This document shows, one piece after another, positions 29,993 to 38,214 of a DNA stretch of 64,000 nt. Position 1 is the first letter of the stretch; every line of letters starts with the position of its first letter. Under the pieces are notes generated by a model. It searched no databases. It was not told the origin of the DNA and saw only the letters and a program-made list of their open reading frames with translations. Both the position numbers and the translations under genes were made by a program. This stretch comes from Amnibacterium kyonggiense (GTDB lineage Bacteria; Actinomycetota; Actinomycetes; Actinomycetales; Microbacteriaceae). The stretch is from assembly GCF_004364555.1 (NCBI RefSeq), contig NZ_SOAM01000002.1, positions 186,001-250,000 on the forward strand, written 5' to 3'.

Positions 29993-31831
29993 CTAGAGGT
30001 GCGTCGCCAGGAACCGGACGAGGGCGTGCAGGAGGCGCCGGCGGGAGGCCGCGCGCCGGTACTCGTGCCCCTCGCCGGGCAGCTCGAGGTACTCCACGGG
30101 CCGGTCGAGCCGCTGCAGCGCATCGACGATGCGCCGCGCCTCGCCGACCGGCACGTTCGTGTCGAGCTCGCCGTGGACGACGAGCAGCGGGACGTCGATC
30201 GCCTCGGCCTGCCGCAGCGGCGAGATCGCCTCGAGCAGCGCGCGGTCCCGCTCCGGGTGCCCGTACTTCGTGACGGCCGCCGCGCCGATCCACGGCTCGG
30301 TCTCCTCGTAGAACCGCGTCAGGTCGCTCATCCCGCAGACGTCCACCCCGGCGGCGAAGACGCCGGGGGAGAAGGCGAGCGAGGCGAGCGTGAGGTAGCC
30401 CCCGTAGGAGCGGCCGGTCACGCCGATGCGGCGCCGGTCCGCGACGCCGGAGGCGACGAGGTGGTGCGCCGCGGCGCGCACGTCGCCGAACGCGTCGAAG
30501 CGACCGCCGAGGTCGTCCGCGTGCACGAACTCCCGGCCGAAGCCCGAGGAGCCGCGGATGTTCACGCCGAAGACGCTGACCCCGGCCGCCGCGAGCGCCT
30601 GGTGCTGCGGGCTGAACGTCGGGCGCTCCTGCGCCTCCGGGCCGCCGTGGAGGAACACGACGGCCGCCCGGGACCCCGCTGCGCGGTAGAGCCAGCCGGT
30701 GAGCGGCAGCCCGTCCTCGCCGTGGAAGGTCTCGAGGGTCGGCACGACGAGCCGGCTCTGCGGTTCCGGCGCCGCGGTGACGCGCGTCCAGCGCCGGCTG
30801 TGGGTGTCGAGGTGCCAGAGCTCGTTCGAGCGCTCCGGACCCTCCACCCCGAGGATCACCGAGCCGCCGTCGCGCGACAGCACCGGTGTCGTCGCGACGA
30901 GGCCGGGCATCCCGGTGATCGGCTGCCGCTCGTGGGTGGCGGTGTGGAAGAGCTCCAGCTCGCTGCGGCCGGCCGTGTTCCAGACGAGCAGCAGCAGCTC
31001 GCCGGCGTCGTCGGCGTCGACCGCCTCCAGCTCCGCGTCGTCGCGGTACGCGAGCGTCCGCGGCTCGCCGCGGTGCCCGTTCGGCCCGAAGGGGAGGCCG
31101 ATCAGCTGCCGCCGGCTCAGCCCGACGTCGGAGGCGAGGTAGACGTAGAGCGGCCCGGACTCGCCCTCGGGCGCCGGGCGGACCAGTGCCGTGTCGGTCG
31201 AGCCCGTGCCGCTCGGCAGCAGCGGGAAGTGCTGGTCCTCCAGCCGGTCGACGACGGAGCAGAACTGCCGGCCGCGCTCGCCGTCGAGCAGGATCAGGAA
31301 CCGCTCCTCGAGGGAGACGTCGAGCACGTGGACGAGGTCGCCCTCGGCGAGGGGGTCGAGGCGCCCGGTCCGCGGGTCGGCGAGGAACGACCGCGTCGGC
31401 CGTCCGGGCGCGGGGGAGGGGAACGTCACGACCACGCGGTGGCCGCTGCGGGTCCACGGGCCGAGCTCCGCGTGCTCGTCGTGGTCGCCGGCGATGCGGC
31501 GGGCCTCCGAGCCGTCCGGACGCACGACCCAGACCTGCGTCCGCACGCCGCCGTCGGTCGCGACCGTGCAGGCGAGCCAGCGGCTGTCCGCGGACCAGGA
31601 GACGGCGATCACGGGGTCCGCCGAGAGCGGGATGCGCTGCGCCGGGGGGGCCTCGCCCGTGAGCACGACCTCCTGCACCCAGACCTCGGGCGCACCGGAG
31701 CGGTCGCTGATGAACGCGACGCGCTTCGCGTCGGGCGTCATCGTCGGGCACCAGCTGCCCCAGACGCCGACGAGCTCGTCCCCGAGCCGGACGGCGGCGT
31801 CGATGCGGTCGTCGGTCGCGGTGTCCGTCAC
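29993..31831 (-). CDS. S9 family peptidase (prolyl oligopeptidase/acylaminoacyl-peptidase type)
   Basis: A 612-residue cytoplasmic serine peptidase. Residues about 20-340 form a beta-propeller (repeated WSADSRWLACTV and LSRDGGSVILGV blades) that limits access to short peptides. Residues about 370-612 are the alpha/beta hydrolase with FLHGGPEAQERP, the nucleophile Ser475 in GRSYGGY, the Asp in HGELDTNVP and the His in PGEGHEYRR. It lies 33 bases downstream of the HAD gene in the amide-ligase locus and may be co-transcribed or use its own CAGACT hexamer, 6 bases before GTG 31831. A role in degrading the peptide made by that locus is inference. Confidence 0.85.
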   Translation of the reverse strand: MTDTATDDRIDAAVRLGDELVGVWGSWCPTMTPDAKRVAFISDRSGAPEVWVQEVVLTGEAPPAQRIPLSADPVIAVSWSADSRWLACTVATDGGVRTQVWVVRPDGSEARRIAGDHDEHAELGPWTRSGHRVVVTFPSPAPGRPTRSFLADPRTGRLDPLAEGDLVHVLDVSLEERFLILLDGERGRQFCSVVDRLEDQHFPLLPSGTGSTDTALVRPAPEGESGPLYVYLASDVGLSRRQLIGLPFGPNGHRGEPRTLAYRDDAELEAVDADDAGELLLLVWNTAGRSELELFHTATHERQPITGMPGLVATTPVLSRDGGSVILGVEGPERSNELWHLDTHSRRWTRVTAAPEPQSRLVVPTLETFHGEDGLPLTGWLYRAAGSRAAVVFLHGGPEAQERPTFSPQHQALAAAGVSVFGVNIRGSSGFGREFVHADDLGGRFDAFGDVRAAAHHLVASGVADRRRIGVTGRSYGGYLTLASLAFSPGVFAAGVDVCGMSDLTRFYEETEPWIGAAAVTKYGHPERDRALLEAISPLRQAEAIDVPLLVVHGELDTNVPVGEARRIVDALQRLDRPVEYLELPGEGHEYRRAASRRRLLHALVRFLATHL

Positions 31832-31864
31832 GGCCCCAGTCTGGCGCGCCCCGGGTGAGCGCGG

Positions 31865-32548
31865 TCAGCGGACGAGTGCCGGCAGCTCCGCCAGGGACCG
31901 GATGACGGCCGTCTCGTCCGGCGGCGCCGTGCCGTCGCGGTCGAGCAGCACCGCGCCGAGGCCGGCGCCGCGCGCGCCGAGCACGTCCACCTCGTGCTCG
32001 TCGCCGACGTACAGCACGGCGGACGGGTCCGCCCCGATCCGCTCGCACGCGACGAGGAAGGCGCGCGGGTCCGGCTTCCGCAGCCCGAGCGCGCCGGCCG
32101 TCAGCACCGGGCCGACGAGGTCCAGCAGGCCGATCGTGCGCAGCTTCGCGGTCTGCTGGTCCTCGGCGCCGTTCGTGAGGACCGCGGTGCGGACGCCGGC
32201 GTCGTGGAGCGCGCGGATCGCGGGACCGGCGTCCTCGAAGCCGTGCCAGGACCGACGGTAGGCCGCGCCGTAGCCGGACGCCCACTGCGCGTCGAGCTCG
32301 TCGTCCGTCCCGATCCGCTCGCCCAGCACGGGGAGCACGTCGCGCAGTCGCGCGCGGCGCTGCTCCTCCCAGCCGAGTCCGCCGGCCCGCCACTGCGCGA
32401 GGCGGAGGTCCTGCGCGGCGAACCAGGCCGCCTCGACCTCCGGGGTCAGCCGGGCGCCGAGCCAGGCGCGGACGGCCTCCCGGGCCGCACTCGTGTGGTC
32501 CATGAGCACGCCGTCGAGGTCGAGCAGCACCGTGCGGACGTCGCTCAC
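31865..32548 (-). CDS. HAD-superfamily hydrolase
   Basis: A 227-residue haloacid-dehalogenase-like phosphatase. Motif I is LLDLDGVLMDH with the nucleophilic and acid Asp residues; motif II is LTNGAED; motif III/IV includes KPDPRAF and YVGDEHEVDVLGARGAG. The alpha-helical cap sits between motifs I and II, as in the HAD-IA/PGP-like group. The substrate is unknown. Its GTG overlaps the stop of the asnO-like gene (GTGA), so it belongs to the amide-ligase operon. Confidence 0.85.
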   Translation of the reverse strand: MSDVRTVLLDLDGVLMDHTSAAREAVRAWLGARLTPEVEAAWFAAQDLRLAQWRAGGLGWEEQRRARLRDVLPVLGERIGTDDELDAQWASGYGAAYRRSWHGFEDAGPAIRALHDAGVRTAVLTNGAEDQQTAKLRTIGLLDLVGPVLTAGALGLRKPDPRAFLVACERIGADPSAVLYVGDEHEVDVLGARGAGLGAVLLDRDGTAPPDETAVIRSLAELPALVR

Positions 32549-34329
32549 GGGATGCGGTTCGACTGCAGCCAGAGCTCGAGCAGGCCGAGCTGCCAGAGCG
32601 CGTTGCTGCCGAGCGTCGTGCGCTCGGTGTTCGGGTCCGCGAGGAGGCGGTCGACGGTGTCGCGGCGGAACAGGTCCCGGCGGCGCGCTGCCGGGTCGAG
32701 CAGCGCGTCCCGGACCAGGTCGAGCATCGCCCCGTCGAGCTGCCGGATCGCCGGGACCGGGAAGTGCCCCTTCGTCCGGTCGATGACCTCATCGGGGACG
32801 AGGCCGCGACTCGCGCGCTTCAGCACGCCCTTGCCGCCGTCCGCGAGCTTCAGCTCGGGCGGGATGCGCCCCGCCAGCTCGACGAGCTCGTGGTCGAGGA
32901 AGGGCACCCGGCCCTCCAGCCCCCACGCCATCGTCATGGTGTCGACCCGCTTCACCGGGTCCTCGACGAGCATCGTCGTGGTGTCGACCCGGAGGGCGGC
33001 GTCGACGGCGGTCGTCGCGCCCGGGGCGCCGAACGCGGCGTCGAGGAACGCACGTGGCACGTCGGACTCCGCGAGCCAGGCGGGGTTCAGCCAGGTCGCC
33101 ATCTCGGCCCACGGCCGGTCCACGAACGCCGCCGCGTACGCGTCGGTCGCGTCGACCCGGCCGACGTCCGCGAGCGGCGGGTACCACTCGTAGCCGCCGA
33201 GCACCTCGTCGGCGCCCTGGCCGGACTGCACGACCTTGATCGACTTCGCGACCTCCTGCGACAGGAGGTAGAACGCGACGCAGTCGTGGCTGACCATCGG
33301 CTCGCTCATCGCCGCGACCGTCCCGCCGATCGCGGGCACGAGGCGCTCGGTCGCGATCGGGATGCGGTGGTGCCGGGTGCCGAACCGCTCGGCGACGAGG
33401 TCGGAGTACGAGAACTCGTCGCCGGCCTCGCCGCCCGCGTCCTCGAACCCGATGCTGTAGGTCGCGAGGTCCGTCTGCCCCAGCTCCGCCAGCAGGGCGA
33501 CGATGAGGGACGAGTCGAATCCGCCGGACAGGAGCACGCCGACCGGCACGTCCGCGACCATCCGCCGCTCCACGGCGACCCGTGTCGCCTCCAGCAGCGC
33601 GTCCTGCCAGTCCTCCGCGCTCAGGCCGGAGTCGGCCGGTCGCCGCTCGAAGGACGGGCGCCAGTAGACGGTGTCGGCGGCGGTCCCGTCGGGCTCGACG
33701 ACCCGGACGGTCGCGGGCGGCAGCTTGGTGATCCCGGCGAGGATCGTGCGGGGCGCTGGGACGACCGAGTGGAAGCTCATGTACGCCGCGAGCGCCTCCC
33801 GGGCGACGGTCGTGTCGACGCCGCCCGCCGCGAGCAGCGCCTGGGGCGTGGAGGCGAAGCGGAGGAGGCCGGGCCGCTCGTCGAGGTAGAGCGGCTTGAT
33901 GCCGAGCCGGTCCCGCACGAGCACCGTCCGCCCGCTCGCGTGCTCGTGGATCGCGATCGCGAACATGCCGCGGAACCGGTCGACGAACCCGACGCCCCAC
34001 TCGTGCCAGGCCTTGAGGATCACCTCGGTGTCGGAGGCGGAGCGGAACACGTGCCCGAGCCGCCGCAGCTCGTCGCGGAGCTCGTGGTGGTTGTAGATGC
34101 AGCCGTTGAAGACGATCGTCGCGCCGGTCTCGTCGTCGACCATCGGCTGCGCCCCGGCCGGCGAGAGGTCGATGATCGCGAGGCGCCGGTGCCCGAACGC
34201 CGCGGCGCCCTCCGCCCGGACGCCCTCACCGTCGGGTCCGCGGTGCACGAGGCAGGCGGTCATGCGGCCGACCGCGTCCAGATCGGCCGGTCGGCCGTCG
34301 AATCGGAGCTCGCCCGCCAGTCCGCACAT
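32545..34329 (-). CDS. AsnO-like glutamine-dependent amidotransferase (N-acetylglutaminylglutamine amidotransferase type)
   Basis: A 594-residue class II amidotransferase. The N-terminal glutaminase has the nucleophile Cys2 (MCGLAG), RGPDGEG, FNGCIYN and SDTEVILKA. The C-terminal ATP pyrophosphatase domain has the PP-loop SGGFDSS at 268-274 and SGQGADEVLGGY. The sequence follows the AsnO branch that forms the terminal amide of N-acetylglutaminylglutamine amide more closely than housekeeping AsnB. It lies 22 bases after a ligase/ATP-grasp fusion, which could supply the peptide to be amidated. GAGGAGG precedes ATG 34329. Plain asparagine synthesis cannot be excluded. Confidence 0.8.
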   Translation of the reverse strand: MCGLAGELRFDGRPADLDAVGRMTACLVHRGPDGEGVRAEGAAAFGHRRLAIIDLSPAGAQPMVDDETGATIVFNGCIYNHHELRDELRRLGHVFRSASDTEVILKAWHEWGVGFVDRFRGMFAIAIHEHASGRTVLVRDRLGIKPLYLDERPGLLRFASTPQALLAAGGVDTTVAREALAAYMSFHSVVPAPRTILAGITKLPPATVRVVEPDGTAADTVYWRPSFERRPADSGLSAEDWQDALLEATRVAVERRMVADVPVGVLLSGGFDSSLIVALLAELGQTDLATYSIGFEDAGGEAGDEFSYSDLVAERFGTRHHRIPIATERLVPAIGGTVAAMSEPMVSHDCVAFYLLSQEVAKSIKVVQSGQGADEVLGGYEWYPPLADVGRVDATDAYAAAFVDRPWAEMATWLNPAWLAESDVPRAFLDAAFGAPGATTAVDAALRVDTTTMLVEDPVKRVDTMTMAWGLEGRVPFLDHELVELAGRIPPELKLADGGKGVLKRASRGLVPDEVIDRTKGHFPVPAIRQLDGAMLDLVRDALLDPAARRRDLFRRDTVDRLLADPNTERTTLGSNALWQLGLLELWLQSNRIP

Positions 34330-34351
34330 CGGCTTCCTCCTCGTCCGCGCG

Positions 34352-36886
34352 TCAGCGCAGGCGGTGCTCCGGCAGCACCACCCAGGTGTCCTTCGCCCCG
34401 CCGCCGCGCGAGGAGTTGACGACCAGGCTGCCCTCCGGCGCCACCCGCGTCAGCGCGAGATCGGCGAGCCGGTAGTCCCGCTTCCGGTGCCCGGTCGCGT
34501 AGACGAACGCGCGGAGGTCGACGTGCCGGGGCTGCAGCAGCCCCTCCTCGAGCGACGGGACGGAGGACAGCGACACGACCTCCTGCGCCACCCAGGCCGC
34601 CGGGTGCTCGGCGATCTCCGCCCGGCGGAGGGCCACCTCGGCCGCATCGGCCGCGGGCCCCACGAGGACGCCGCGGCCGCCGGAGCCGTCGACCGGCTTC
34701 GTCACGAGCTCGCCGACGCGCTCGAGGACCGCCTGCCGCTCGGTCTCGTCGCCGAGCCGGTAGGTCGGCACGCTCTCGAGCAGCGGCCGCTCGTCGAGGT
34801 AGTACCCGATCAGCTCCGGCACCGAGCGGTACATCGCCTTGTCGTCGGCGACCCCGTTGCCCGGCGCGTTCACGAGCGTGACGCCGCCGGCCGCGGCGAC
34901 GTCCATCACCTCGGCGCCGATCGGGCGCCCGTCGGCGTCGACGAGGTCGGGCAGCTCGACGTCGATCCGCAGGTAGAGGCTGCCGATCCGGTCCCCGGTC
35001 GTGCGCTGGACCACCGTGCCGCCGTCCACCGCGAGGTCGGTCGGGACGGCGAGCAGCAGCCCGGCGCCGTCCGCCAGCCGCCGGTGCTCGAACCAGGCGG
35101 AGCTGCCCTCGCCGGACGACAGGAGCGCGCCGCGCGTGCCCGGCTTGGCTCCGGCGAGCACGGTCCGCCGCAGCTGCTCGAGCGCGGTCGCCGGGTCGGC
35201 GAGGTGGTCCGGCCGCGGCATGTCGGGCACCACCGCGTCCATCAGCTGTCGGATCGCGATCGCGTACGCCACCCCGGACGGGTTCCGCACGTTGTCCTCG
35301 AGCACGCGCCAGCCGCCGTACTCGTTCCGGACGAGGTCGAAGCCCTGGATCGGTGCCCGCAGCACGCCCGGCGGCAGGCGCGTCGCGGCCGCGAGCCAGC
35401 CCGGCGCGCCGAGCACGGCGGACTCCGGCAGCACGCCGTCGGCGAGGATCCGGCGCTCGCCGTACACGTCGGCGAGGAACGCCTCGATCGCGCGCGCCCG
35501 CTGCGTGAGCCCGGCCTCGAGCTCCGCCCACTCGTAGGGCTGCACGAGCCGCGGCACGAGGTCGACGCGGAACGGCTGCTTCGTGCCGGCGACGCCGAAG
35601 TCGAACGAGTGCTGCTCGGTCCAGACGTCGCGCGCGGCCTCGCGCTCGACGATGCCGCCGGCACCGAGCGAGCGGACGTGGTCGACGACGGGCCGGTAGT
35701 TCGGCCGGGCGACGGCGTTGGCGTCGATGCCCTCGTCGCCCGCCCGAACCCGGTATCGCCGGAGGGCCGGCGCGGTGGGGATCGGGCCGGAGGCGGGACC
35801 CTGCGTCTCCTCGACGACGCTCCGCATGACGTCGGCGAGGTCGCCCCGCTGGACGAAGGCGGCGCGCTGGCGGTCGGCGGAGTTGCCGCGGGCGAGCACC
35901 GTCTCCGCGAGCTCCGCGACCTCCTCCCAGTCGCCGAGCTCCTCGAGGGTGTCGCGCAGATCGCCGACGAGCCGCCGCACCGCCTCCGGCGCGGGGAGCG
36001 GGCGCGGATGCTCGGAGTCGTCGAGCAGCCGGCCGGTGAGCCCCCCGCGGGCGGCCTGCCAGATGCCGGCGCGGTGCAGCGGCAGCGCGCGCTGGAGGCG
36101 CGGCGCCCCGGCCTCGATCGACCGCTCGGCGTCCCGGACCATCGCGCGGAAGAGGCCTGCGATCAGGACCGCGTCGTCGACGAGCGGGCAGGCGTCGCAG
36201 ATCCGCAGCTCGAGCGTCGGCGCGTGGGCGGACGGCCGGACGTCGAAGTACGCCATCTTCGCGTCCGCGATGACGCCGGAGGCGATGAGGTCCTGCAGCA
36301 GCTCGTCGTAGGCCGCCGCGTCCGCCAGCGGTCCGGTCGCCCCGGCGCTCGGCCAGCGCTGCCAGATGATCGTGCGGATGGACGCGTACCCGGTGTCGAG
36401 GCCGTTCCAGTAGGGCGAGCTGGCGGAGAGCGCGAGCAGCACGGGCAGGCGCGGCGCGATCCGCTGCGCGATCTCGACGGCGAGGTCGCGGTCGGCGACG
36501 CCGACGTGGATCTGCGTGCCGCAGATCAGCTGCTCGTCGACGAGCAGGCGGTATTGCTCCTGCATGCGCCCGTAGCGGCCGGTCGCCGTGAGCTCGAAGT
36601 CCCGGAACTCGCTGCGCGGCGCCGTGCCGACCGCGGCGATCCCGAGCCCCTCCTTCGCGGCCACGTCGACCACGCGCCGGCGGAGGCGCAGCAGCTCCGA
36701 GCGGAGGCCGTCGAGCGTCGTGACGACGTCGGTGTTCGTCTCCACCGTCGTGCGCTGGATCTCGGCGGAGAAGTTCTCCCGGGGGAGCTTCGCGAGCAGC
36801 TGCGGCGCGCGAGCGGCGAGCTGCCAGCGCTCGAGGTCGATGAGGTGCAGCTCCTCCTCGGCGCCGAGCGTCAGTGCGGCGGCCAT
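34352..36886 (-). CDS. fused carboxylate-amine ligase (GCS2/YbdK) and circularly permuted type 2 ATP-grasp protein
   Basis: An 844-residue two-domain protein. Residues 1-365 are a glutamate-cysteine-ligase-2-like domain (GAEEELHLID, residues 8-17, and CGTQIHVGVADRD with metal-binding residues). Residues about 390-844 are a circularly permuted ATP-grasp: EDNVRNPSG at 530-538, NAPGNGVADDKAMY at 673-686 and a glycine-rich GGRGV at 736-740. Both domains form amide bonds with ATP, so it may join amino acids in two steps. It is the first gene of the operon that continues with an AsnO-like amidotransferase, a HAD phosphatase and an S9 peptidase. ATG 36886 lies 6 bases after TAAGGT. Confidence 0.85.
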   Translation of the reverse strand: MAAALTLGAEEELHLIDLERWQLAARAPQLLAKLPRENFSAEIQRTTVETNTDVVTTLDGLRSELLRLRRRVVDVAAKEGLGIAAVGTAPRSEFRDFELTATGRYGRMQEQYRLLVDEQLICGTQIHVGVADRDLAVEIAQRIAPRLPVLLALSASSPYWNGLDTGYASIRTIIWQRWPSAGATGPLADAAAYDELLQDLIASGVIADAKMAYFDVRPSAHAPTLELRICDACPLVDDAVLIAGLFRAMVRDAERSIEAGAPRLQRALPLHRAGIWQAARGGLTGRLLDDSEHPRPLPAPEAVRRLVGDLRDTLEELGDWEEVAELAETVLARGNSADRQRAAFVQRGDLADVMRSVVEETQGPASGPIPTAPALRRYRVRAGDEGIDANAVARPNYRPVVDHVRSLGAGGIVEREAARDVWTEQHSFDFGVAGTKQPFRVDLVPRLVQPYEWAELEAGLTQRARAIEAFLADVYGERRILADGVLPESAVLGAPGWLAAATRLPPGVLRAPIQGFDLVRNEYGGWRVLEDNVRNPSGVAYAIAIRQLMDAVVPDMPRPDHLADPATALEQLRRTVLAGAKPGTRGALLSSGEGSSAWFEHRRLADGAGLLLAVPTDLAVDGGTVVQRTTGDRIGSLYLRIDVELPDLVDADGRPIGAEVMDVAAAGGVTLVNAPGNGVADDKAMYRSVPELIGYYLDERPLLESVPTYRLGDETERQAVLERVGELVTKPVDGSGGRGVLVGPAADAAEVALRRAEIAEHPAAWVAQEVVSLSSVPSLEEGLLQPRHVDLRAFVYATGHRKRDYRLADLALTRVAPEGSLVVNSSRGGGAKDTWVVLPEHRLR

Positions 36887-36931: not shown

Positions 36932-37492
36932 TCAGGCGAGCCCGGTCGTACCGACGAGCAGACCGATCGACCAGGTCGCCGCGAGGGCGAGGCCGCCGCC
37001 GACGAGCGTGCGGATCGTCGGCCGAAGCGCGGGCGCGCCGCCGAGCCGGGCGCCCGCAGCGCCGGTGAGGGCGAGCGCCAGCAGGACCACGAGGACCGTG
37101 ACGGGGACGCGGGCGGCCCCCTGCGCCAGCACGACCGCGATGAGCGGCAGCACGCCGCCCGTGAGGAAGGAGCCAGCGGAGGCGAGCGCGGCCGCCCAGG
37201 GGTTCGCGCCGCTCTCCATGCTCGCGGCCCGCTCGCCGTCGCGCTGGCTCGAGACGGAGACGTACTCGCCGAGCGCCATCGACACCGCGCCGCCGATCAG
37301 CGCGGCGAGCCCGGCGAGCAGCACGGCGCCGTGCGCCGAGGAGGCGCCCGCGACGCCGACGACGATGGCCGCGACGGACACGATGCCGTCGTTCGCCCCG
37401 AGCACGCCGGCACGCAGCGTGTTCGCCCGACCGGCGACGACGCCGCGGTCGGGGGACGCGCCGTGCGTGAGGACAGCCAGGATCGAGGTCAT
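36932..37492 (-). CDS. VIT1/CCC1-family metal transporter
   Basis: A 186-residue membrane protein with five hydrophobic helices. The signature RAGVLGANDGIVSVAAIVVGVAG (helix 1, read from residue 26) and GGAVSMALGEYVSVSSQRD (helix 2 with acidic metal ligands) identify the vacuolar iron transporter family, which moves Fe(II) or Mn(II) out of the cytoplasm in bacteria. The cytoplasmic loop between helices 2 and 3 is short, with no ferritin-like insertion. GAGCAT lies 6 bases before ATG 37492, and a weak DtxR/IdeR-like box lies 42 bases upstream, so iron control is possible. Confidence 0.85.
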   Translation of the reverse strand: MTSILAVLTHGASPDRGVVAGRANTLRAGVLGANDGIVSVAAIVVGVAGASSAHGAVLLAGLAALIGGAVSMALGEYVSVSSQRDGERAASMESGANPWAAALASAGSFLTGGVLPLIAVVLAQGAARVPVTVLVVLLALALTGAAGARLGGAPALRPTIRTLVGGGLALAATWSIGLLVGTTGLA

Positions 37493-37533
37493 ACCGGCAT
37501 GCTCGTCCTCGCGCGCGGTGCCCGCCAGCAAGG

Positions 37534-37552
37534 GAAGGCAAGCCTCAGCGCT
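37534..37552. promoter_or_regulatory. weak candidate DtxR/IdeR iron box
   Basis: On the minus strand the half GAGGCTTGCCT resembles the right part of the consensus TTAGGTTAGGCTAACCTAA; I count 12 of 19 positions. It lies 42 bases upstream of the VIT1-type transporter gene, a sensible place for metal control, but the left half is poor. Confidence 0.25.
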
Positions 37553-37594
37553 GGTCAGAGGGCGGTTCCGGGCCGCGGTCCAGCGGACGACGAG

Positions 37595-37600
37595 TAGGGT
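37595..37600 (+). promoter_or_regulatory. -10 element TAGGGT, leaderless
   Basis: TAGGGT ends 8 bases before GTG 37609. Its last base is the first of a competing TTG at 37600, so the promoter excludes that longer start. Confidence 0.45.
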
Positions 37601-37608
37601 TGGTTGAC

Positions 37609-38214
37609 GTGTCACCTCATCACCCGTACCCGGAGGCCAAGTCGCCGCAGCTCGTCCTCCTCCGCCACGGCGAGACGGAGTGGAGCCGCACCGGCAAGCA
37701 CACCGGCAGGACCGACATCCCGCTGACCGCCGAGGGCGAGCGCCGCGCCGCGGCGCTCGAGCCGGTGCTGGCCGGCCGGGACTTCGCGCTCGTGCTGGCG
37801 AGCCCGCGGCAGCGCGCCGTCCGCACCGCGGAGCTCGCGGGCTTCGCCGGCCGGATCGAGACGACCGAGGACCTGGCCGAGTTCGACTACGGCTCCTACG
37901 AGGGGCTCACCTCGCCGCAGATCGCGGAGGAGCGGCCGGGCTGGGACCTGTGGCGCGACGGGGCGCCGGACGGCGAGACGGCCGCCGAGGTGCGCGTCCG
38001 GGTCGAGCGCGTCATCGCGCGCGCCCAGCGGGTGCTCGACGACGGCCGGGACGTGCTGCTCGTCGCGCACGGTCACGTGCTGCGCGCGCTCGGCGCGGCG
38101 TGGATCGACCTCCCGCCCGAGGGCGGCTCCCGGCTCGTGCTCTCGACCGCCGGGCTGGCGGAGCTCGGGTACGAGCACGGCAATCGCGTCATCGACCTGT
38201 GGAACGCTGCGTGA
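37609..38214 (+). CDS. histidine phosphatase family protein (phosphoglycerate-mutase-like)
   Basis: A 201-residue single-domain phosphatase. The catalytic RHGETEW is at about residues 19-25, with the second catalytic His in VAHGHVLRALG and the substrate Glu in AEFDYGSYEGL. This set fits acid phosphatases of the CobC/phosphoglycerate mutase superfamily rather than a true mutase. The substrate is unknown. It is followed after one base by a methyltransferase gene and is probably co-transcribed with it. Confidence 0.85.
   Translation: MSPHHPYPEAKSPQLVLLRHGETEWSRTGKHTGRTDIPLTAEGERRAAALEPVLAGRDFALVLASPRQRAVRTAELAGFAGRIETTEDLAEFDYGSYEGLTSPQIAEERPGWDLWRDGAPDGETAAEVRVRVERVIARAQRVLDDGRDVLLVAHGHVLRALGAAWIDLPPEGGSRLVLSTAGLAELGYEHGNRVIDLWNAA

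What the first reader, a model, noticed from the sequence alone, without database searches (positions are those of the whole stretch)
29993..36886. Putative small-peptide-amide synthesis operon: GCS2/ATP-grasp fusion, AsnO-like amidotransferase, HAD phosphatase, S9 peptidase
Four minus-strand genes lie with gaps of 22 bases, a 4-base overlap, and 33 bases. The first encodes two fused ATP-dependent carboxylate-amine ligases and the second a class II amidotransferase of the AsnO branch. In the known N-acetylglutaminylglutamine amide system the amidotransferase works with a GNAT/ATP-grasp ligase and an M42 peptidase. Here the ligase is a different fusion and the peptidase is of family S9, so the locus looks like a parallel, probably uncharacterised route to an amidated di- or tripeptide (compatible solute, redox thiol or signal) with its own turnover enzyme.
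Basis: partly seen in the sequence, partly recalled or inferred. Interest (0 to 1): 0.78.

Follow-up and report, generated by a model that had tools for sequence, protein, structure and literature searches.

The report
Peptide-amide pathway with swapped ligase
An actinobacterium carries a conserved gene set that probably builds a small peptide with two fused ligases, caps its end as an amide and later breaks it down, using the same kind of capping enzyme as a known osmoprotectant pathway but a different ligase and a different peptidase.

Summary
The ligase is an 844-residue fusion of a GCS2/YbdK domain and a circularly permuted ATP-grasp domain. The second gene is a full match to NCBIfam TIGR03104, the N-acetylglutaminylglutamine (NAGGN) amidotransferase (AT; 910 bits, cut-off 570). 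The genome has no NAGGN ligase (TIGR03103) or peptidase (TIGR03106) over the cut-offs. The conserved unit is three genes: fusion, AT, S9 peptidase; the HAD gene is incidental. Of 80 fusion loci fetched, 65 have the AT beside the fusion, 3 have it unlinked, and 12 genomes lack it. AT and S9 go together: all 68 AT-positive genomes have an S9 (3 only a 39-41% homolog), while 11 of 12 AT-less genomes lack the S9 ortholog. In a phylum sample, 31 of 296 genomes carry this AT, each beside a peptide ligase, of four architectures. Best reading: a GshF-like two-step ligase makes a gamma-glutamyl-type tripeptide, AT amidates its end, S9 recycles it. The product and every enzymatic step are inferred, not shown. 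I rate it a new variant of the NAGGN kind. A redox-thiol reading is weak: 36 of 44 fusion genomes tested have MshC.

The parts
34352..36886 (-). Ligase fusion, 844 aa: GCS2/YbdK-like ligase plus circularly permuted type 2 ATP-grasp ligase
   Evidence: Pfam and NCBIfam matches; AlphaFold2 model pLDDT 88; Foldseek matches to YbdK and glutathione synthetases
35801..36877 (-). GCS2 domain, residues 4-362 of the fusion
   Evidence: NCBIfam NF010041 match to residues 4-362; G8, E10, E12 invariant in 41 aligned fusions
34439..35554 (-). Circularly permuted ATP-grasp domain, residues 445-816 of the fusion
   Evidence: PF14403 358 bits; D681-D682-K683 and K730 invariant in 41 aligned fusions
32545..34329 (-). 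Class II amidotransferase of family TIGR03104, 594 aa
   Evidence: 910 bits against cut-off 570; Cys2 and the SGGxDSS loop invariant in 42 aligned sequences
29993..31831 (-). S9 peptidase, 612 aa, PD40 propeller match plus catalytic domain; no signal peptide seen by eye
   Evidence: PF00326 149 bits on residues 405-612; motifs GRSYG at 473, HGELD at 553, GEGH at 586 (triad assignment by recalled convention)
31865..32548 (-). HAD hydrolase, 227 aa; overlaps AT by 4 bases; not part of the conserved core
   Evidence: PF00702; no match over 70 bits in 80 fusion loci, one 59% homolog in L156

Best explanation
The locus is a synthesis-and-turnover module for a small, C-terminally amidated, gamma-glutamyl-type peptide. 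Step 1 (inferred): the GCS2 domain phosphorylates a side-chain carboxylate, most likely that of glutamate, and joins it to an amino acid. Step 2 (inferred): the ATP-grasp domain, whose fold matches glutathione and glutathionylspermidine synthetases, activates the free carboxylate of that dipeptide and adds a second amino acid, so the fusion works like GshF but is built from other families. Step 3 (inferred from the family): the amidotransferase converts the terminal alpha-carboxylate to the amide with glutamine nitrogen, as its NAGGN relatives do. Step 4 (inferred from co-occurrence): the S9 peptidase recycles the capped peptide. Shown here: gene order, domains, conserved motifs, conservation, co-occurrence, tree structure. 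The likeliest role is a stress-related compatible solute; a peptide ending in glutamine amide, such as gamma-Glu-X-Gln-NH2, is the first candidate at low confidence.
For: AT scores 910 bits on TIGR03104, cut-off 570. AT beside the fusion in 65 of 80 loci (63 by matches over 70 bits, L129 at a contig end, L140's genome on another contig). All 68 AT-positive fusion genomes have an S9, 11 of 12 AT-less ones lack the S9 ortholog. In the phylum sample 31 of 31 TIGR03104 genes lie beside a peptide ligase. GCS2-AT-S9 without the ATP-grasp domain exists in 4 f5 loci and in Nonomuraea, and the fusion's GCS2 domain groups with these at support 99. Model of the fusion matches YbdK, plant glutamate-cysteine ligase and glutathione synthetases. 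Motif residues of both ligase domains are invariant in 41 fusions. Only 3 columns are fixed and different between 65 fusion-linked and 23 NAGGN-ligase-linked ATs, which suggests that they cap similar ends.
Against: No substrate or product is known. Twelve of 80 fusion genomes lack the AT, so the ligase product need not be amidated. The co-loss of AT and S9 rests on few independent events: sign test p 0.0625. One AT-less genome (L145, a MAG) keeps S9, and three AT-positive genomes have only a 39-41% S9 homolog elsewhere. GCS2 proteins are not all glutamate-specific, so the gamma-glutamyl bond is a family-level guess. No stress-type promoter motif was found upstream: 0 of 81 loci for the full SigF-like motif. 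No control shows how few AT differences descent alone would give.
Confidence: 0.5

Rival explanations
1. A low-molecular-weight thiol system: the fusion makes gamma-Glu-Cys-X, a glutathione-like thiol, in bacteria that lack mycothiol.
For: GCS2 plus glutathione-synthetase-like fold. The own genome has no MshC over the cut-off (260 against 485 bits); 8 of 44 other fusion genomes tested, among them both Amnibacterium and all four Naasia genomes tested, also lack it.
Against: 36 of 44 fusion genomes tested have MshC. Three same-family genomes without the full fusion lack MshC too, so the absence does not track the fusion. An amide cap is not known to me for thiols.
Confidence: 0.1
2. It is another route to NAGGN itself, with the fusion replacing the GNAT/ATP-grasp ligase.
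For: AT passes the NAGGN model by 340 bits and differs from NAGGN-linked ATs at only 3 fixed columns.
Against: No acetyltransferase domain in the locus. Ten of 50 fusion genomes searched also carry the NAGGN ligase, 7 of them beside their own fusion-linked AT, so the two are not simple substitutes.
Confidence: 0.07
3. A peptide-tagging or protein-modification system like the one proposed for other circularly permuted ATP-grasp genes.
For: The ATP-grasp domain is homologous to those proteins.
Against: Partners differ: AT and S9 instead of a transglutaminase-like protease; a separate CP ATP-grasp gene with such a neighbour is elsewhere in this genome (L152). The ATP-grasp domains of the fusions form their own group at 95.
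Confidence: 0.08
4. The second gene is an ordinary asparagine synthetase and the neighbours are unrelated to it.
For: It also passes the TIGR01536 cut-off (420 against 267 bits).
Against: TIGR03104 fits by 490 bits more; a ligase lies beside this family in 31 of 31 phylum loci; Gln371 is invariant in 42 ATs where two of three AsnB-like outgroup rows have Glu.
Confidence: 0.04

Closest known systems
NAGGN pathway (AsnO, Ngg and M42 peptidase; TIGR03104, TIGR03103, TIGR03106)
   Same: Amidotransferase of the same NCBIfam model; operon of ligase, amidotransferase and peptidase
   Different: Ligase is a GCS2/ATP-grasp fusion without acetyltransferase; peptidase is S9; the genome lacks TIGR03103 and TIGR03106 over the cut-offs
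GshF (GshAB), bifunctional glutathione synthetase
   Same: Two successive ligases in one chain: a gamma-glutamyl ligase fold, then a glutathione-synthetase-like ATP-grasp fold
   Different: Built from GCS2 and circularly permuted ATP-grasp families; no match to the GshF models at E 0.01
YbdK family carboxylate-amine ligases (TIGR02050)
   Same: N-terminal domain passes the model, 268 against 176 bits
   Different: Fused to an ATP-grasp domain and linked to an amidotransferase
Circularly permuted type 2 ATP-grasp proteins (3n6x)
   Same: Homologous ATP-grasp domain, Foldseek rank 1, 36% identity
   Different: Other partners; the genome's separate copy has a transglutaminase-like neighbour
GCS2-AT-S9 cassette of the f5 loci and Nonomuraea (found here)
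   Same: Same amidotransferase and S9 families and a GCS2 of the same group
   Different: No ATP-grasp domain

Membership tests
NAGGN system | amidotransferase over the TIGR03104 cut-off | tested here: met
   910 against 570 bits
NAGGN system | GNAT/ATP-grasp ligase TIGR03103 | tested here: not met
   Own genome: best 31 bits, cut-off 569
NAGGN system | M42 peptidase TIGR03106 | tested here: not met
   No match at E 0.001 in the own genome; it is also absent from many GNAT loci (11 of 21 have it), so it is a weak criterion
NAGGN system | product is N-acetylglutaminylglutamine amide | not testable with these tools
   needs metabolite analysis
GshF | match to GshF models (TIGR01435, NF002688) | tested here: not met
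   Not among the 12 families at E 0.01
YbdK family (TIGR02050) | score over the curated cut-off | tested here: met
   268 against 176.4 bits
EgtA (TIGR03444) | score over the curated cut-off | tested here: not met
   23.8 against 370.8 bits
Asparagine synthase (TIGR01536) | score over the curated cut-off | tested here: met
   420 against 267 bits, but TIGR03104 is better by 490 bits
Asparagine synthase (TIGR01536) | makes asparagine from aspartate | not testable with these tools
   needs an enzyme assay
CP ATP-grasp with transglutaminase-like and alpha-E partners (recalled from Iyer et al. 2009) | such partners beside the ATP-grasp gene | tested here: not met
   Neighbours of the fusion are AT, HAD, S9, VIT1 and S4 genes; the transglutaminase-like gene lies beside the other copy, L152

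The most novel reading that the evidence does not exclude
The NAGGN amidotransferase is a general C-terminal amide-capping module. Lineages of the phylum pair it with ligases of different make-up (GNAT/ATP-grasp, GCS2, GCS2-ATP-grasp fusion, ATP-grasp alone), often each with its own hydrolase (M42, S9, DUF1028), giving a family of uncharacterised amidated peptides. The fusion lineage extended an older GCS2-AT-S9 dipeptide pathway to a tripeptide by gaining an ATP-grasp domain.
Probability: 0.5. Interest if true: 0.68.

Novelty: new variant of a known kind. Interest (0 to 1): 0.55.

Why it matters
NCBI's model names this enzyme N-acetylglutaminylglutamine amidotransferase. In 10 of the 31 phylum genomes that carry it over the cut-off, the partner ligase beside it is not the NAGGN one, so a prediction of NAGGN from this gene alone is probably wrong there. 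The neighbourhoods point to amidated peptides that have not, to my knowledge, been isolated. The natural series (GCS2 with cap, fusion with cap, fusion without cap) makes each step testable with purified enzymes.

Tried and rejected
Four-gene operon as the unit: rejected. HAD shows no match over 70 bits in the 80 fetched fusion loci and none over 55 bits in the 30 phylum loci; one homolog at 59% lies between AT and S9 in L156. In 55 of 56 cassettes measured the AT-S9 gap is 600 bases or less, too short for a HAD gene of this length; the exception is L066, about 1.9 kb, whose one ORF tested matched NAD_binding_10 weakly.

A GCS2-AT fused protein in L045, suggested by a long ORF: rejected. Pfam and NCBIfam found only the amidotransferase in that ORF, and the coordinates put the GCS2 match in another frame, so it is a separate gene just upstream.

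SigF-type promoter upstream of the fusion: 0 of 81 loci for two stricter motifs, 2 of 81 for a loose one against a shuffled mean of 1.4. The lead was PMC4694148 (passages only), which lists an asparagine synthase and a carboxylate-amine ligase of M. smegmatis, both down in a sigF mutant; I did not test whether those genes belong to the families here.

Sigma-70 and terminator scans found 0 sites. The inverted-repeat scan gave nothing that I could use. Mycothiol replacement is not supported as a general explanation. The three loci with an unlinked AT have it paired with a NAGGN-type ligase, which would fit a shared cap enzyme, but they are one clade, so this is one event.

Literature: ten searches listed no paper on this cassette that I recognised. 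Papers seen as passages only: PMC8070244, PMC4431377, PMC2588565, PMC7824335, PMC12568646, PMC4694148. The 2009 amidoligase survey (Iyer et al.) and the 2010 NAGGN paper (Sagot et al.) are not held. A passage of PMC4431377 says that linked ATP-grasp, COOH-NH2 ligase and GNAT genes were seen before in many operons and often act in succession, citing that survey, so the general idea is in print and absence of this cassette from print is not claimed.

Full report
Observation. The window lies in a 3.7 Mb genome of six contigs. Its closest named relative by the ligase is Amnibacterium setariae at 88%, so the host is probably a Microbacteriaceae.

The ligase. Residues 4-362 match GCS2/YbdK models (TIGR02050 268 bits, cut-off 176.4) and residues 445-816 match CP_ATPgrasp_2 (358 bits). 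In an alignment of 41 fusions the residues G8, E10, E12 of the GCS2 part and E530-D531-N532, D681-D682-K683, K730 and K832-D833 of the ATP-grasp part are invariant. G8, E10 and E12 fit the GhExE signature that PMC2588565 describes for GCS2 (passages). The set includes eight fusions from genomes without the amidotransferase, so those ligases look intact too. An AlphaFold2 model (pLDDT 88, pTM 0.85) matches in Foldseek 3n6x (putative glutathionylspermidine synthase), YbdK 1r8g, plant glutamate-cysteine ligase 2gwc, and human and plant glutathione synthetases. The layout thus resembles GshF in logic: a gamma-glutamyl ligase followed by a glutathione-synthetase-like ligase; by model match it is not a GshF member. 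The same list holds Cp1B, a fungal ATP-grasp enzyme that forms a pseudodipeptide from trans-epoxysuccinic acid and an amino acid (PMC12568646, passages).

The amidotransferase (AT). It scores 910 bits on TIGR03104, cut-off 570. Cys2 and the SGGxDSS loop are invariant in 42 aligned ATs. In P. aeruginosa the NAGGN operon is described as asparagine synthase, GNAT-family protein and aminopeptidase, with AsnO moving glutamine nitrogen to the second glutamine of N-acetylglutaminylglutamine (PMC8070244, passages). The own genome has neither that ligase over the cut-off (best 31 bits of 569) nor the M42 peptidase. All 42 aligned ATs carry Gln371, where two of three AsnB-like outgroup rows have Glu.

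Conservation of the unit. A scan of species genomes with the fusion found 329 relatives and kept the best 80 loci. By matches over 70 bits, 58 have both AT and S9 in the fetched stretch, 5 AT only, 4 S9 only, 13 neither; in one of the 58 (L124) the S9 match is a 66-residue fragment, with a 73% ortholog elsewhere in that genome. Two of the 13 are contig ends: L129 ends in the first 35 residues of an AT, and the genome of L140 continues on another contig with the rest of the fusion, AT, HAD and S9. So 65 have the AT beside the fusion. Three more (L085, L087, L107) have an AT elsewhere, paired there with a NAGGN-type ligase. Twelve genomes have no AT over the cut-off; 11 of them also lack the S9 ortholog (best matches 35% or less and partial), and the twelfth, L145, a MAG, keeps it. 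All 68 AT-positive genomes have an S9: 65 a match of about 50% identity or more, some cut by contig ends, and 3 (L070, L077, L088) only a 39-41% full-length homolog elsewhere. On the best fusion tree (66 of 81 rows) the AT state needs at least 8 changes and the S9 state 7, with AT-positive and AT-negative members inside Subtercola boreus and inside Naasia, as repeated joint loss would give. The independent-pairs test gives 5 same, 0 opposite, 1 no difference, p 0.0625: too few pairs for significance. The scan ranks loci by closeness to the window protein, so they are not an even sample.

An even sample. In 296 genomes spread over the phylum, 31 have TIGR03104 over its cut-off. I read the neighbourhood of 30 and the own locus. 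All 31 have a peptide ligase beside the AT: 21 GNAT/ATP-grasp (11 with an M42 in the fetched stretch), 4 GCS2 with S9 (all in family f5, 4 of its 8 genomes in the sample), 3 circularly permuted ATP-grasp with a DUF1028 gene (family f18), 1 divergent GCS2 (L045), and 2 fusions with S9. One GNAT and one M42 gene were checked against NCBIfam; the other assignments rest on tblastn to these. Two GNAT loci (L049, L054) show a weak 55-bit S9-like match nearby, so S9 may not be exclusive. Nonomuraea also has GCS2-AT-S9. Among the listed matches, the full-length fusion occurs in 2 of the 296 genomes, both times beside the AT.

Trees (quick method, SH-aLRT only). ATs linked to the fusion fall on one side of a branch: 42 rows at 100, 43 with L041 at 79. 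GNAT-linked ATs, with the ATP-grasp-linked and L045 rows among them, group at 94. The GCS2 domains of the fusion and the AT-linked standalone GCS2 genes share a group at 99, together with two unlinked genes (L153 of family f5 and the M. branderi plasmid gene); L045 lies outside it (midpoint root). The ATP-grasp domains of the fusions are one group at 95 and are not specially close to the AT-linked ATP-grasp of f18. The simplest history is a GCS2-AT-S9 pathway to which one lineage added an ATP-grasp domain by fusion, while f18 built its own combination separately.

What the AT says about the product. Between 55 fusion loci and 4 f5 loci, the share of well-conserved columns that are fixed but different is 0.093 for AT, 0.197 for GCS2 and 0.298 for S9. 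Between 65 fusion-linked and 23 GNAT-linked ATs only 3 columns (401, 528, 570) are fixed and different. So the capping step and the end that it caps are likely alike, while the rest of the peptide differs. I ran no control for how few differences descent alone would leave.

Not simply NAGGN again, and not simply a thiol. Of 50 fusion genomes searched (50 of 80; the 11 with fusion alone were not among them), 10 carry the NAGGN ligase over the cut-off, 7 of them besides a fusion-linked AT of their own. MshC, the mycothiol ligase, is over its cut-off in 36 of 44 fusion genomes tested and not in 8, nor in the own genome. Three same-family genomes without a TIGR03104 over the cut-off and without the full fusion lack MshC too. 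A thiol role stays possible in Amnibacterium and Naasia but does not explain the spread.

The HAD gene overlaps the AT by four bases here and is probably co-transcribed, but apart from L156 no HAD match was seen in the loci examined. I leave it out of the mechanism.

Novelty. Each protein family is known, and linked peptide ligases in operons are known in general (PMC4431377, passages). I found no account of a GCS2/ATP-grasp fusion with a NAGGN-type cap and an S9 peptidase in the ten searches listed under Tried and rejected, but the most relevant survey could not be read.

Noticed in passing
L057:7636-11684, L058, L062 (family f18): A circularly permuted ATP-grasp gene, a TIGR03104 amidotransferase and a DUF1028 gene lie in a row: a further variant, with DUF1028 where other variants have a peptidase.
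   Followed up: partly
L045:9080-11949: A divergent GCS2-like gene (29-32% to the window's) directly upstream of a TIGR03104 amidotransferase, without S9 in the fetched stretch.
   Followed up: partly
L152:6851-11758 (own genome, contig 1): A second circularly permuted ATP-grasp gene in the same genome, with a transglutaminase-like gene close by.
   Followed up: partly
own genome; G319, G329, G321, G332, G300, G307: No MshC over the cut-off in the own genome, two other Amnibacterium and four Naasia genomes, which suggests that they lack mycothiol; only MshC was searched.
   Followed up: partly
L140, L156: A record titled as an Acidobacteria MAG carries a fusion 86% identical to the window's and a neighbourhood like it, including HAD; probably a mis-binned Amnibacterium relative.
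   Followed up: no
window 36932-37615 and 37600-38214: A VIT1-family gene lies 45 bases upstream of the ligase on the same strand, with a histidine phosphatase gene divergent to it; homologs of both are upstream of the fusion in L066 and L140.
   Followed up: no
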